Shown here: piece by piece, positions 21,749-26,457 of the stretch
How the letters are laid out: each line of letters starts with the position of its first letter
Numbering within the stretch: the first letter of the stretch is position 1
Source: a virus
Virus record (IMG/VR): IMGVR_UViG_3300024940_000006
Location: 1 to 35,308 of that record
Direction: 5' to 3' (one strand)
DNA: 35,308 nt
Made by a program: the position numbers and the translations under genes
The notes under the pieces: model-generated
Told to the model about the DNA's origin: nothing
Seen by the model: only the letters and a program-made list of their open reading frames with translations
Databases searched by the model: none

Positions 21749-22183
21749 TCAAAATTTACTCCAAACATTATTTATTCTAGCTTCATCATATTTATAGCTG
21801 ATTGACTGTCTGCATTCATATTTAAAGTCAGGCTCGCTTGAATCTTTTGGCGCATCTATCCCATCAATTAAATTTAATATTCTCGCCGTCTCGTTCCTCA
21901 ACTGCATATAACAAGGCTCTGTATTTGTCTGCTTTTCCTCTGGCCATGCCTTTAGCACTTTTTGCAATTTAGTCACTTGCATCAAAGCATTTTGTGATTC
22001 ACTGCGCATAAAGTTGCTTTGCCAACCAAAAACCACATCGAGTGAAACTTCTTTTAAATTTTCATTTGTAATAAATAACGGTGTTATATTTTCTGCATTT
22101 TCCTCCGGAATTGATTGAATTTCCTGATCACCACACCCAATTAAGGCTAGCGCTACTACACCTACTAAAATAAATTTATTCAC
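21749..22183 (-). CDS. Hypothetical lipoprotein (accessory gene)
   Basis: The 144-residue product has a lipoprotein signal MNKFILVGVVALALIGC with lipobox LIGC (acylation at Cys17). The mature part is acidic and helical (MQLRNETARILNLIDGIDA; two further Cys in EPCYM and YECRQ could pair). I recognise no family. It is AT-richer than the phage structural genes and has a strong AGGGGG ribosome-binding site. Together with the next gene it forms a two-gene unit between mor and lysis, the kind of place where lysogenic-conversion genes sit. A superinfection-exclusion or envelope role is only a guess. Confidence 0.75.
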   Translation of the reverse strand: MNKFILVGVVALALIGCGDQEIQSIPEENAENITPLFITNENLKEVSLDVVFGWQSNFMRSESQNALMQVTKLQKVLKAWPEEKQTNTEPCYMQLRNETARILNLIDGIDAPKDSSEPDFKYECRQSISYKYDEARINNVWSKF

Positions 22184-22194
22184 ATTTACCCCCT

Positions 22195-22656
22195 TTAGTA
22201 TCTGCGTCTTGTATAAGAAATAATACGATCATTTTTCACGTTTATAATATAAAAAGTACCTCGATAAGTCTCAACTAATCCACTAGTTGTCATAGTGTCT
22301 GTAATAAATTCAGGCTCTTCATTGCACTGTTCAAATCGTGAGAATTTCATCCCTACTCGAAGTGCCCTAAAGTCTTTTCCACATTTTCTTTTCTGTGCGG
22401 CAGATTCTTCTCTATCTACTTGCTCAACAGTTTTCTGCTCTCCTGGCGCACAAGGTCTTTCCTCAGAGTGCCATGAACCATTTTCATCTGTCCATTCTTT
22501 AGCACATGGGATTTTATGCTCCATCGTTTTACATGGGACTTCGATAAACTCTAAGCCATGCGCCCCTTTACTCATTACTTCACAATGCTCTTGGTCTGCA
22601 TAGCCATACGAGGTGAAGATTAATGCCACTGTACTTATTAAAATCAACCTTTTCAT
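22195..22656 (-). CDS. Hypothetical secreted Cys-rich protein, C-terminal SmpA/BamE-like pattern
   Basis: The 153-residue product has a signal peptide (MKRLILISTVALIFTSYGYA, cleavage likely after Ala20). The mature N-terminal half has several Cys (EHCEV, VPCKTM, IPCAKEW, RPCAPG, KRKCGK), suggesting disulfides in the periplasm. The C-terminal part (LRVGMKFSRFEQCNEEPEFITD…YRGTFYIINVKNDRIISYTRR) resembles the strand-helix pattern of SmpA/OmlA-type (BamE-like) domains. It has an AAAGGGGG ribosome-binding site and lies 11 bp from the lipoprotein gene. Function is not known. Confidence 0.72.
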   Translation of the reverse strand: MKRLILISTVALIFTSYGYADQEHCEVMSKGAHGLEFIEVPCKTMEHKIPCAKEWTDENGSWHSEERPCAPGEQKTVEQVDREESAAQKRKCGKDFRALRVGMKFSRFEQCNEEPEFITDTMTTSGLVETYRGTFYIINVKNDRIISYTRRRY

Positions 22657-22685
22657 ATCTGCCCCCTTTAAAATACAACGTGATA

Positions 22686-23093: not shown

Positions 23094-23493
23094 TGCTTGC
23101 CTTTGGTTTAGCTTGTTGCTTTTTAACCAGCGCTGCAATAATGCCGCGCATCTCGGCCGGCTTGCACCATTGCAACTTTTCACGTTTGTACATTTGCTTG
23201 GCAATGCCATCTGCATAAGGCCAGCTCAGTTGCATATCAGCCAGCAACGCGCCAATCTTGCTGATCAACGCCTGCTTGGCCTTGGCGACATCTGGCGCGG
23301 TTTGCGTATTCTTCCATCCACGCGCTTTCATGTGGTTGAGCACAGCAACGCGGCCTGCATAATCCAGCTCACGGCTACTGGTGACACGTGCCACGGTAAA
23401 CAACATGGAGCGATAGGTTTCATCATCCATACCCAGCGCTTTTTTAGCGATGTGGATCATCGCCAATTCAGAGTTTCTGATATCAGGCTTCAC
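23086..23493 (-). CDS. gemA: GemA-like regulatory protein (DUF1018, Mu gp16)
   Basis: The 135-residue product starts at a GTG (23493) with AAAGG six bases upstream, overlapping the RT stop. Family blocks are IHIAKKALGMDDETYRSML (about 13-31), ARVTSSRELDYAGRVAVLNHMKARGW, and LQWCKPAEMRGIIAALVKKQ. In Mu, GemA modulates host gene expression and DNA topology. It is normally next to mor, and here the DGR has been inserted directly before it. Confidence 0.9.
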   Translation of the reverse strand: MKPDIRNSELAMIHIAKKALGMDDETYRSMLFTVARVTSSRELDYAGRVAVLNHMKARGWKNTQTAPDVAKAKQALISKIGALLADMQLSWPYADGIAKQMYKREKLQWCKPAEMRGIIAALVKKQQAKPKASNG

Positions 23494-24853
23494 ATTTAGC
23501 CTTTCTGTATATCTTTGTTAAATCCTTGTTAACGCAGTAACCTTTGCCACGCATAACATTAGCAATAGTTGCGCGGTCTTGATGGCTACTGGATGCTTGT
23601 CCAATTAGTCCAAAGTAGCTATTTGCTACTTCAAATAACTTATCTTTCTTTGTAGCGTTAATTCGGCTTACTGCCTCATTAACAGTGCGTTTGCGTGTAT
23701 ATCTATTCCAAGGTTTAATCACTTGGCCTACAAAATCCACCCCACGATCAACAGGCTGCAGGATTGTTTTCTTTGGATTTAGCCTGGCATTTAATTTATC
23801 TTGCAAGAAAGCATTAATTTCAATCAATGCAGCATTAAGCCATTGTGGTGATTCATGCAGCAGAATGAAGTCATCTACGTAGCGCACATAATGCTTTGCA
23901 CCTATCTTGTGTTTGATAAATTGGTCTAGATCATTCAGATAGACGTTGGCAAAAAACTGTGAGCTAAGATTGCCAATTGGCAAGCCTAAATGGCTTGGTT
24001 GTTCGGCTAAACGCTTATGTTCTGGCACTAAATTCAGCTTGGTTGCTTCACCACGTAACTCATAGTTTTTGCGTGGATCGTGAAACAAGATTAAATCGGC
24101 TAGTGACAACCACCAAGGCTCATGTATCTTCTTTGCAAGCTGCTTGTGTAATACGTTCTTATCGATGGCCACAAAGAAGTTGGCTAGGTCACCCTTTAGA
24201 TAAAACGTTGGCTTGCTCCAGTTTTGAGTAGCGCTGCGTATCTTTTTTTCTAGCCTTTTTACGGCATACAGCGTGCCACGTTCGGGTATGCATGCGCAGC
24301 TGTCTGCGATAAATGATGCATAAAACCTAGGTGAAACGTGGTTATAAAATAGATGGTGGACGATGCGATCTCTAAAATCTGCAGCCCACACTTCACGTGG
24401 CTTTGGCCTCGTGATAACAAAGCAAATGCTTTTACCTGGCAAATATGTGCCAGATTTTATGTCTGTATATAAATCAAACAAATTGCGCTCTAGATTCAGT
24501 TCAAAAGCTAGAGCGCTCTCTGAGTTTCGTTTGTGTTTTCTGCAATCAAAGTACGCTTGGACTAATTCTGCAAACGTAAAGTTGTCGTTATGATCTGCGG
24601 ACAGCGCGAGCGCGGAGCTCGCTAGACTTGTTATTGTTGTTCTGGTTTCCATTATTGAAGTTCTGATACCAAGCCCAGCCTGCTGTATTTTGCTATCTAC
24701 GTCATCTTGTCGAAGGGCTGTATTTAAATCAGCACCGATCAACGAGGCAACTGCGTTAGACCTAACCTGATTCCTATCAGTGGTATCTACGATGCGCATG
24801 GCGGTGACCTTTTGAGTCAGCGGCAAAACCAGATTATTAAATCGTTCAGTCAT
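23483..24853 (-). CDS. DGR reverse transcriptase
   Basis: The product has 456 residues. RT motifs are visible: motif A GDLANFF (Asp222), LPIGNLSSQFFANVYLNDLD (291-310; the LPIGN-x2-SQ block is typical of DGR RTs), catalytic YVDD at 325-328, LNPKKT at 359, then a C-terminal thumb-like region (VNSYFGLIGQ… in part). The ATG at 24853 has AAGG seven bases upstream and follows avd by 13 bp. The template repeat encodes residues about 57-87 of the frame, so the RT core begins right after it (NFTFAELVQAYFDCRKHKR). There is no later ATG before the core except one inside the template repeat. The stop overlaps the gemA start. It copies template RNA with errors at adenines to diversify the target genes. 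Confidence 0.94.
   Translation of the reverse strand: MTERFNNLVLPLTQKVTAMRIVDTTDRNQVRSNAVASLIGADLNTALRQDDVDSKIQQAGLGIRTSIMETRTTITSLASSALALSADHNDNFTFAELVQAYFDCRKHKRNSESALAFELNLERNLFDLYTDIKSGTYLPGKSICFVITRPKPREVWAADFRDRIVHHLFYNHVSPRFYASFIADSCACIPERGTLYAVKRLEKKIRSATQNWSKPTFYLKGDLANFFVAIDKNVLHKQLAKKIHEPWWLSLADLILFHDPRKNYELRGEATKLNLVPEHKRLAEQPSHLGLPIGNLSSQFFANVYLNDLDQFIKHKIGAKHYVRYVDDFILLHESPQWLNAALIEINAFLQDKLNARLNPKKTILQPVDRGVDFVGQVIKPWNRYTRKRTVNEAVSRINATKKDKLFEVANSYFGLIGQASSSHQDRATIANVMRGKGYCVNKDLTKIYRKAKCEA
24594..24683 (-). repeat. DGR template repeat (TR), 90 bp
   Basis: Read on the minus strand in the target frame it encodes AGWAWYQNFNNGNQ and then a run of Asn, followed by KSSELRARAVRR; the Asn codons (AAC/AAT) are the mutable sites. 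The 34 bases at the low-coordinate end are identical to both variable repeats. It lies inside the RT reading frame, where it is read in another frame. In the target frame it is flanked by stop codons, so it is not itself a target gene. Confidence 0.95.
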
Positions 24854-24866
24854 AGGGCCTTAACCT

Positions 24867-25217
24867 TTATGAAACAGACGATGCGGAGCGGCGCCAACCA
24901 TTGGCTTGCTTGCCAATACTACCTGTCAACTCAATGGCCTTAGCATATTGGCCTGTTGAGATTAAACGCTTGTCGCGTGAAAGTCTTAATAGCAATTCGC
25001 ATACTTGAAGTCGCTCTATAAGCGAGATTAAATATCCTGACTTTTCACGTGAGACGTTAGCCCTAAATATCAAAGTGACAATCTCAACGCATTCATCACG
25101 TAGTTTTCCGCCTATGCTTTGTTTAAAATCACGTGGCATATTCTTGGCAAGGTCAGTGATGACATCGAGTAAATCGTATGCCACTTTGTAAATAGGTAAG
25201 GTAGTGTGATTGGCCAT
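24867..25217 (-). CDS. avd: Avd, DGR accessory variability determinant
   Basis: This 116-residue helical protein is of the four-helix-bundle (S23-like) type. It has LPIYKVAYDLLDVITDLAKNMPRDFKQSIGGKLRDECVEIVTLIFRAN, then SLIERLQVCELLLRLSRDKRLIS, and a basic C-terminus (GKQANGWRRSASS). Avd forms a pentameric basic barrel that binds the RT and template RNA and is needed for retrohoming. It lies between target 1 (13 bp) and the RT (13 bp), the classic DGR position. No clear ribosome-binding site is seen, so coupling to the upstream gene is likely. Confidence 0.92.
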   Translation of the reverse strand: MANHTTLPIYKVAYDLLDVITDLAKNMPRDFKQSIGGKLRDECVEIVTLIFRANVSREKSGYLISLIERLQVCELLLRLSRDKRLISTGQYAKAIELTGSIGKQANGWRRSASSVS

Positions 25218-25230
25218 AAAAATAAATAAA

Positions 25231-25701
25231 TTACTGAATTACTGATAATCTGCGGACAGCGCGAGCGCGGAGCTCGCTAGACTTGTTAGTGTAGTGCTGG
25301 GCCCCATTACCGAAGCCCTGAGACCAAGCCCAGCCTGCATTGTTAGCATGTGTTTCAGATGACCAATAAGCCTCTTCTTTAAACTCATCTTTCATAAATT
25401 TATAGAGCATGGCTTGCTCACATCTGTCTGGCAGATGCCCGCCAATACTTTCTGCCCAAGCGACTTGATCACTCCAGCTTGCGCGCTCACTTTCACCTGG
25501 CAACAAAATAGTATGCTCAGCTTTAAGGCCATCAGCACTAATCATGCAGCCAACCCACTTTTCGCCATCGTTAAGATCAGGCATTGATACTGAAATTGGG
25601 AATGCATTCTCAATTAACTTGCCTGATTCATACCGTGCAATCATGCTTTGCAGTTTGTTTTGCTGGCTTTTAATTTCTTCTAATGTGATTGTTTGTGACA
25701 T
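25231..25701 (-). CDS. DGR target protein 1 with C-type-lectin-like variable domain
   Basis: The product has 156 residues. An N-terminal helix (TITLEEIKSQQNKLQSMIARYESGK) is followed by a DUF1566/FGE-sulfatase-like C-lectin fold (EHTILLPGESERASWSDQVAWAESIGGHLPDRCEQAML … EEAYWSSE). The C-terminal variable repeat encodes residues 122-151 (AGWAWSQGFGNGAQHYTNKSSELRARAVRR). Compared with the template, residues 127, 129, 131, 134, 136, 137 and 138 have been changed. The final SSELRARAVRRL strand is intact. No signal peptide, lipobox or membrane helix is present. It is unlike tail fibres in size; the ligand is unknown. Confidence 0.92.
   Translation of the reverse strand: MSQTITLEEIKSQQNKLQSMIARYESGKLIENAFPISVSMPDLNDGEKWVGCMISADGLKAEHTILLPGESERASWSDQVAWAESIGGHLPDRCEQAMLYKFMKDEFKEEAYWSSETHANNAGWAWSQGFGNGAQHYTNKSSELRARAVRRLSVIQ
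25249..25338 (-). repeat. DGR variable repeat VR1, 90 bp
   Basis: It is the same length as the template repeat. By direct base comparison it has 11 substitutions, every one at a template adenine (coding strand), and none at C, G or T. The last 34 bp are identical (initiation-of-mutagenic-homing type end). The stop codon of target 1 lies just beyond. Confidence 0.95.
25261..25277. other. Hairpin GCGAGC-N5-GCTCGC in the conserved end of VR1 (also in VR2 and TR)
   Basis: A perfect 6-bp inverted repeat with a 5-nt loop lies inside the conserved 34-bp end (also at 25761-25777 and 24606-24622). Hairpins close to the variable repeat are known to assist target recognition in some DGRs. Here it is inside the repeat and not after it. 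Because it is also in the template, it cannot by itself distinguish template from target. Confidence 0.5.
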
Positions 25702-25720
25702 TTAAATAACTCCAAAATAA

Positions 25721-26089
25721 CTAAATAATTGAATGACTAAATAGGAACTCTGCGGACAGCGCGAGCGCGGAGCTCGCTAGACTCGAGATAGTGTTGTACT
25801 GGTAGCCATTAGTGAAGCCCTGAGACCAAGCCCAGCCTGCTTCTCTTTCATGCGTAGTATTTGACCAGTACCAATCTTTCTTGAATTGGCCTCTGCTTTT
25901 ATCAAACATTAAAACCTGTTCTACACGGTTTGGCAGGTCTCCGCCAAGTTGTTTTGCCCAGTCCATAGCGTCTTGCCAATTGCCATCATCTTTATCGCCT
26001 GGCAGTAAAATTGAGTGCTCACCAGTACCGTCTGGATTGATAATCGCGCCTAAATACACTTCACCTTCTTTTAACTCTGGTTGCTGCAT
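25721..26089 (-). CDS. DGR target protein 2, frameshifted inside its variable repeat
   Basis: The product is 122 residues from ATG 26089 (MQQPELKEGEVYLG), seven bases after AGGAG; an ATG two codons earlier is too close to that site. It has the same fold as target 1 (EHSILLPGDKDDGNWQDAMDWAKQLGGDLPNRVEQVLMF … DWYWSNTTHEREAGWAWSQGF) without the N-terminal helix. In the variable repeat 2 extra nucleotides after the mutable codons change the frame. The normal …SSELRARAVRR end is replaced by SSLASSALALSAEFLFSHSII. Without the 2 nt the gene would end …RRVPI at a TAG (25737-25739). The present protein probably misfolds or lacks the last strand. Confidence 0.88.
   Translation of the reverse strand: MQQPELKEGEVYLGAIINPDGTGEHSILLPGDKDDGNWQDAMDWAKQLGGDLPNRVEQVLMFDKSRGQFKKDWYWSNTTHEREAGWAWSQGFTNGYQYNTISSLASSALALSAEFLFSHSII
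25749..25840 (-). repeat. DGR variable repeat VR2, 92 bp (2-nt insertion)
   Basis: It has nine clear substitutions relative to the template, all at template adenines. Where the template has aacaag before the conserved tctagcgag, VR2 has atctcgag, 2 nt longer. The 34-bp conserved end is identical to the template and VR1. Confidence 0.93.
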
Positions 26090-26133
26090 CTTCATTCTCC
26101 TTTTAAATAATCACGGGCGTTAAAACCATCCCC

Positions 26134-26159
26134 TATAGCCCATTTGTTAACGGGCTATA
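26134..26159 (-). terminator. Hairpin between HU gene and DGR cassette
   Basis: TATAGCCC-N10-GGGCTATA forms a perfect 8-bp stem after the HU stop codon. The following minus-strand sequence has only a short T run. It may separate DGR expression from the early transcript; the 38 bp left before target 2 show no convincing promoter. Confidence 0.5.
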
Positions 26160-26175
26160 AGTGAGAGTTTTGGCC

Positions 26176-26457
26176 TTAAGCCACTGCATCCTTCAATGCT
26201 TTTAAAGCGCTGAAATGCGGCACTTTCTTTTCAGGAATGGCCAAGGCTTCGCCTGTTGCTGGGTTGCGCCCCGTGCGTGCTGCGCGTGTTTTAACACTCA
26301 ATTTGCCAACACCTGGCAAAGTCACTTCCCCACCTTTTTCCAGCTCAGCCTGTGCAATTTCACCAGCTTTATCCAGCACAAACTTGATTGCAACTTTTGA
26401 AACACCTGTGTTGTCATTGCTTTCAGCAATGGCATTAATTAATTCTGCTTGGTTCAT
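26176..26457 (-). CDS. HU-family DNA-binding protein
   Basis: The 93-residue product has the HU/IHF fold: MNQAELINAIAESNDNTGVSKVAIKFVLDKAGEIAQAELEKGGEVTLPGVGKLSVK, then the beta-arm motif RTGRNPATGEALAIP with its tip proline, and a C-terminal helix. HU bends DNA and in Mu assists the transpososome; Mu relies on host HU, whereas this phage carries its own. The ribosome-binding site is AGGAG. It is 115 bp from gam. Confidence 0.93.
   Translation of the reverse strand: MNQAELINAIAESNDNTGVSKVAIKFVLDKAGEIAQAELEKGGEVTLPGVGKLSVKTRAARTGRNPATGEALAIPEKKVPHFSALKALKDAVA

What the first reader, a model, noticed from the sequence alone, without database searches (positions are those of the whole stretch)
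25249..25840. All 20 clear template-to-VR substitutions fall on template adenines
By base-by-base comparison on the coding strand, VR1 has 11 substitutions and VR2 has 9 relative to the template. All are at A; the many C, G and T positions are unchanged and the 34-bp end is identical in all three repeats. Resulting changes are mostly Asn codons to Ser, Gly, Ala, His, Tyr, Thr. This is the fingerprint of DGR adenine mutagenesis and shows that both targets have been rewritten from this template. VR1 and VR2 share some outcomes (TCT, GGC at the first two variable codons), which hints at a common earlier event or at conversion between the two.
Basis: seen in the sequence. Interest (0 to 1): 0.7.

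Follow-up and report, generated by a model that had tools for sequence, protein, structure and literature searches.

The report
Phage diversity-generating retroelement with frame-shifted target

Summary
Against a 90-nt template (27 A), VR1 has 11 and VR2 has 10 substitutions, all at A (P about 3e-7 and 1.5e-6). The system is a complete diversity-generating retroelement (DGR: two C-type-lectin targets, Avd, TR, RT) in the early region of a Mu-like phage. Two other phages carry the identical TR with four further, different VRs; one of their two VR2s is also frame-shifted (+1). In 226 related VRs, A changes at about 40%, other bases at about 1%; 8 VRs carry frame-breaking indels, 31-fold more per base than the same genes' N-terminal parts (P 2e-5). 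Conversion between VR1 and VR2 is not supported. Unexpectedly, an AT-rich 8-nt repeat (about ATTYAGTM, 3-4 units) follows the VRs, is absent after TR, and is almost perfectly VR-specific (99 of 105 strict matches). Only 13 of 225 VRs have a GC hairpin there, the required element in BPP-1. The core finding is ordinary DGR biology; the indels and the repeat are worth testing.

The parts
24590..24683 (-). template repeat (TR), 94 nt; 90-nt core with 27 adenines
   Evidence: only full-length template; identical in two other distinct phages
25245..25338 (-). variable repeat VR1: 11 substitutions, all at template A
25749..25840 (-). variable repeat VR2: 10 substitutions at template A plus a net 2-nt insertion (about 25782-25792)
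25231..25701 (-). target gene 1 (156 aa), C-type lectin fold with N-terminal helix, VR1 at its C-terminal end
   Evidence: Pfam Lcl_C below cut-off, 49 of 52 homologues match Lcl_C; AlphaFold pLDDT 93; Lcl 8q4e Z 13.5 (rmsd 4.0, 114 aligned), Bd2740 8oks Z 13.2 (rmsd 2.3, 101 aligned)
25721..26095 (-). target gene 2 (124 aa as read), VR2 at its C-terminal end, frame-shifted by the VR2 insertion
   Evidence: intact in L103 (ends ELRARAVRRVPI)
24867..25217 (-). avd, accessory variability determinant (116 aa)
   Evidence: PF22296 bAvd E 2.3e-14; phrog_3206 E 4e-33
24681..24883 (-). structured RNA RF03018 (RT-15), leader directly upstream of TR
   Evidence: 135 bits, gathering 82; same place in 13 other family loci scanned
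23483..24853 (-). DGR reverse transcriptase ORF; YVDD and LGLPIGNLSSQ motifs; frame open through TR (true start codon unknown)
   Evidence: RVT_1, phrog_1423 E 1e-116
25221..25247 (-). 8-nt-period AT-rich array directly downstream of VR1
25716..25742 (-). 8-nt-period AT-rich array directly downstream of VR2

Best explanation
This is a diversity-generating retroelement of a Mu-like phage. An RNA made of the RT-15 leader plus TR is copied by the RT with Avd into cDNA with random bases opposite template adenines; the cDNA replaces the 3' ends of two adjacent C-type-lectin genes, starting from the shared GC-rich end. Shown by sequence: all parts, the A-only substitutions, an invariant template with ever-different targets, the predicted fold of target 1. 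Inferred: that the RT sometimes also slips in the A-rich stretch, giving indels; when not a multiple of three these switch the target off (VR2 here), and a later round of homing from the intact template could restore the frame. Also inferred, and weaker: the 8-nt AT-rich array after each VR is a target-site element that tells VR from TR, in the place of the GC hairpin of BPP-1. The confidence given is for the DGR core; I put about 0.65 on the VR2 frameshift being real and about 0.5 on a target-site role of the array.
For: A-only changes, P 3e-7 and 1.5e-6. TR 94/94 identical in two other phages with four further, different VRs. 226 unique VRs, 113 loci: A changed 1794/4495 and 1360/3344; C, G, T 0.5-1.6%. 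RT, Avd, RT-15 RNA present. C-type lectin fold. Indels: 8 frame-breaking in 16.6 kb of VR core against 1 in 64.6 kb of N-terminal parts, 31-fold, P 2.3e-5; gaps concentrate in the A-rich part, 24 in 10.5 kb against 4 in 6.6 kb, P 0.005; two are in records named as cultured strains (L151, L161). Array: lag-8 self-match 0.494 after VR, 0.237 after TR, 0.277 shuffled; 99 of 105 strict hits lie within 45 nt after a called VR, the other six follow VR-like ends or lie at contig starts, none on the other strand of 1.07 Mb.
Against: No activity is shown, only its traces. The VR2 insertion rests on one assembly; no reads could be seen. VRs vary within populations and share a 35-nt end, so assembly errors are a real possibility for the metagenomic cases. 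Frameshifts near a C-terminus may be tolerated better than in the N-terminal control. Loci are related, so counts are not fully independent. No experiment ties the array to homing.
Confidence: 0.93

Rival explanations
1. The VR2 2-nt insertion is an assembly or sequencing error in a hypervariable, repeated stretch, and the real target is intact.
For: Single assembly; VR1, VR2 and TR share 35 identical nt; VRs are mixed in natural populations; L103's VR2 is intact.
Against: A second phage with the same TR has a different indel in VR2 (+1); frame-breaking indels are 31 times denser in VR cores than upstream and occur in records named as cultured strains (L151, L161).
Confidence: 0.3
2. VR1 and VR2 share outcomes because one was converted from the other, or both came from one cDNA.
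For: The first three jointly changed positions agree (TCT, GGC).
Against: 3 of 7 agree, 2.8 expected; within-locus agreement is no clear excess over between-locus agreement (45 of 500 shuffles); the window's VR2 agrees more with another phage's VR1 (5 of 7).
Confidence: 0.05
3. The 8-nt array after VRs is a transcription or translation signal of the operon, not part of homing.
For: It lies around and after stop codons and just before the next start codon at VR1 and VR2; AT-rich stretches can help translation.
Against: It follows VRs of remote third targets as well and occurs almost nowhere else in 1.07 Mb; it is absent after TR; it is locked in phase to the VR end.
Confidence: 0.25
4. Ordinary divergence of three paralogous repeats, without a DGR.
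For: None beyond the general possibility.
Against: A-only pattern and intact RT, Avd and RNA.
Confidence: 0.01

Closest known systems
Bordetella phage BPP-1 DGR (Rauchvirus; L168 fetched here)
   Same: VR, avd, TR, RT order; adenine mutagenesis; VR at the 3' end of its target gene (PMC3240598)
   Different: BPP-1-like L168 has a GC hairpin 4 nt after VR and the RF03022 RNA downstream of TR; the window family has RF03018 upstream of TR, TR running into the RT frame, an AT-rich array after VR, usually no hairpin, and two targets that here lie outside the tail module
Burkholderia phage Magia and Pseudomonas phage Cruim01 DGRs
   Same: same family: two targets, avd, RT-15 (annotated in Cruim01), TR, RT; one Magia target annotated as lectin fold, potential DGR target; array-like sequence after VR
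   Different: Magia carries a tyrosine integrase, so it is not a transposable phage; RT 63-68% identical; Cruim01 has a GC hairpin after the array at one VR
DiGReF group 3 DGRs and multi-VR DGRs (PMC3521204)
   Same: TR overlapping the end of the RT ORF, and two or more VRs, are described classes
   Different: the passages read describe no array after VR and no frame-breaking VR indels

Membership tests
diversity-generating retroelement (DGR) | template-variable repeat pair with changes confined to template adenines | tested here: met
   (plus a 2-nt insertion in VR2)
diversity-generating retroelement (DGR) | reverse transcriptase of DGR type with the SQ motif | tested here: met
   LGLPIGNLSSQ and YVDD in the ORF; phrog_1423 and RVT_1; SQ motif in 105 of 108 family loci
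diversity-generating retroelement (DGR) | accessory protein Avd or equivalent | tested here: met
   PF22296 and phrog_3206
diversity-generating retroelement (DGR) | target protein with C-type-lectin (or other known) variable domain at the C-terminus | tested here: met
   for target 1; target 2 by similarity of its VR and phrog_4245
diversity-generating retroelement (DGR) | active mutagenic retrohoming | not testable with these tools
   only indirect: identical TR, six different VRs in three phages
BPP-1-type target site | GC-rich hairpin with 4-nt GRNA loop 4-34 nt after VR | tested here: not met
   none after VR1 or VR2; 13 of 225 family VRs have any GC-rich perfect hairpin in 60 nt
BPP-1-type DGR RNA (RF03022) | structured RNA of this family downstream of TR | tested here: not met
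   no match at E up to 0.1 in 23400-26200; RF03018 found upstream of TR instead; L168 control positive

The most novel reading that the evidence does not exclude
A large family of phage DGRs marks its targets with an 8-nt AT-rich direct-repeat array instead of (or before) a GC hairpin, and its retrohoming makes frame-breaking indels that switch targets off until the next rewriting from the intact template restores the frame, so that the DGR acts as a reversible on/off switch as well as a diversifier.
Probability: 0.3. Interest if true: 0.7.

Novelty: new variant of a known kind. Interest (0 to 1): 0.47.

Why it matters
How a DGR tells its target from its template is a central question; BPP-1 uses a hairpin that this family mostly lacks. 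A repeat that sits after the targets and almost nowhere else is a directly testable candidate and also a simple tag for finding targets. Frame-breaking indels in targets would show a second product of homing and a way to silence and revive a gene without losing it. The finding as first stated (A-only changes) is ordinary for DGRs.

Tried and rejected
VR1-VR2 conversion: tested against expectation and between-locus pairs, not supported. BPP-1-type hairpin after VR: searched with perfect stems of 6 or more, absent here; a 6-bp stem (GCGAGC/GCTCGC) lies inside the shared 3' end of TR and VRs, but a hairpin there is found in only 19 of 225 VRs, so I gave it no role. Full-length RT from the ATG at 24853: the frame is open through TR in 121 of 125 loci, but the same stretch is a structured RNA, so the true RT start is left open. 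Other VRs in the window: none. Further carriers of the same TR in viral contigs: only three records, two of them with identical VRs. Literature: Wu 2018, Handa 2018, 2021 and 2025, and the paper I recall as the source of RT-15 are not in the library; indels within AAC repeats, in multiples of three, are cited from Wu 2018 by PMC12875486, so in-frame indels are not new. Searches for a described repeat after VR found none, which is weak evidence.

Full report
What was checked. The window is a 35,308-base virus record; searching it with the template finds three copies only: TR 24590-24683(-), VR1 25245-25338(-) and VR2 25749-25840(-). Aligned to the 90-nt template core (27 A, 24 C, 23 G, 16 T), VR1 has 11 substitutions and VR2 has 10, every one at an A; the chance of this under random placement is 3.1e-7 and 1.5e-6.

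What was missed. VR2 is two bases longer than the template within the variable core: TR AATAACAAGTC, VR2 ACTATCTCGAGTC (window about 25782-25792; exact placement is ambiguous). Target gene 2 is therefore read in another frame from there on: its protein ends SSLASSALALSAEFLFSHSII, where the undisturbed frame would give SSELRARAVRRVPI. In a close relative (L103) the same gene is intact and ends ELRARAVRRVPI; in another (L104/L009) VR2 has a different indel, net +1, and stops early (...TMQV).

Surroundings. On the minus strand the order is target 2, target 1, avd, RT-15 RNA, TR, RT. Avd matches PF22296 and phrog_3206; the RT matches RVT_1 and phrog_1423 and has YVDD and LGLPIGNLSSQ. The phage is Mu-like: transposase with Mu C-terminal domain, an AAA ATPase in the place of MuB, Gam, HU, Mor, S24 repressor, terminase, portal, head and contractile tail genes. 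The DGR lies between the HU/Gam genes and Mor, away from the tail genes; the record ends near the baseplate genes, so a tail-fibre target beyond its end cannot be excluded. Target 1 is predicted with pLDDT 93 as an N-terminal helix plus a C-type lectin fold, closest to Legionella Lcl (Z 13.5, rmsd 4.0) and Bdellovibrio Bd2740 (Z 13.2, rmsd 2.3); VR1 covers the last strands. What the targets bind is unknown; that they are non-virion proteins is only suggested by gene place.

Relatives. Avd relatives gave 80 viral loci and 51 loci from bacterial genomes, mostly Betaproteobacteria; adding two named phage records, 226 unique VRs in 113 loci could be aligned to their own TR. Template A is changed in 39.9% (viral set) and 40.7% (genome set) of cases; C, G and T in 0.5-1.6%. 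Three records carry a TR identical to the window's over 94 of 94 bases; two of them have the same VRs, so they count as two phages. All six VRs of the window and these two phages differ. This is direct evidence for repeated rewriting from an unchanged template.

Shared outcomes of VR1 and VR2. Three of seven jointly changed positions agree, 2.8 expected from base and context. Over all loci, agreement within a locus is 0.437; pairing VR1 with VR2 of other loci gives 0.405 +/- 0.023, and 45 of 500 shuffles reach the observed value. No conversion need be invoked; bias in outcome and selection at given codons suffice.

Indels. Eight of 226 VRs have frame-breaking indels in the variable core (window VR2 +2, L009 VR2 +1, L047 -1, L050 +1, L054 +1, L121 +4, L151 +1, L161 -1); nine more have changes by three bases. 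In the N-terminal parts of the same genes one frameshift was seen (L080) in 64.6 kb, against 8 in 16.6 kb of core: 31-fold, P 2.3e-5. Gaps concentrate in the A-rich part of the copied repeat rather than its GC-rich end (24 in 10.5 kb against 4 in 6.6 kb, P 0.005). L151 and L161 come from records named as strains, not as metagenome assemblies. Indels by three in AAC repeats, explained by slippage, have been described (Wu 2018 as cited in PMC12875486). That slippage also yields frame-breaking indels, and that these can be undone by the next homing, is my inference. Assembly error remains the main rival for the window's own case.

An element after the VRs. Directly after the point where VR and TR similarity ends, the family shows an AT-rich sequence with an 8-nt period, about ATTYAGTM in three to four units, in fixed phase to the VR end. 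Self-match at lag 8 is 0.494 after VRs, 0.237 after TRs and 0.277 in shuffles. A strict three-unit pattern hits 105 times in 1.07 Mb; 99 hits lie within 45 nt after a called VR, the other six follow VR-like ends or lie at contig starts, and none is on the other strand. In the window four of five hits with up to two mismatches lie after VR1 and VR2, 0.78 expected. A GC-rich hairpin, shown in BPP-1 to be required for target recognition (PMC3240598), occurs within 60 nt in only 13 of 225 VRs; where it does, as in some Pseudomonas phages, it follows the array at about +30. I propose, without experimental proof, that the array is a target-site element. The papers I could search do not mention it, but key DGR papers are not held.

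RNA. Rfam RF03018 (RT-15) covers 24681-24883(-), from the end of avd to the first bases of TR, and lies in the same place in 13 other family loci scanned; the BPP-1-like phage has RF03022 after TR instead. So RT-15 is very probably the leader of this family's DGR RNA. Whether that is already stated in the literature I could not check.

Verdict. The finding is real, and ordinary as a DGR signature. Its interest rises through the frame-shifted target and the VR-specific array, both of which can be tested directly.

Noticed in passing
window 25221-25247 and 25716-25742 (-): 8-nt-period AT-rich array directly after each VR, absent after TR, conserved across the family and almost perfectly VR-specific.
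   Followed up: yes
window 24681-24883 (-): Rfam RF03018 (RT-15) fits the avd-TR spacer exactly and does so across the family: RT-15 looks like the 5' leader of this DGR's RNA, whereas the BPP-1-like phage has RF03022 after TR.
   Followed up: partly
window 24590-24853 (-): The RT reading frame stays open through TR and most of RT-15 (121 of 125 loci through TR), so part of the template may be translated in another frame as the RT N-terminus.
   Followed up: partly
L055 about 4967, L058 about 4965, L114 about 3965, L157 about 892: Array hits that follow VR-like ends not called by my TR-VR search: likely further targets, so the array can be used to find VRs.
   Followed up: no
L154, L133, L144, L143, L062, L080, L037 and others: Several loci have three or four VRs, some several kb upstream, also followed by the array.
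   Followed up: partly
226 VRs of the family: Outcome bias at template A: G most, then T, then C (904, 581, 309 in the viral set; 676, 438, 246 in the genome set).
   Followed up: no
window 22143-22197 and 22616-22670: Two 55-nt direct repeats, 71% alike, at the starts of two neighbouring small ORFs upstream of the endolysin, perhaps related signal peptides.
   Followed up: no
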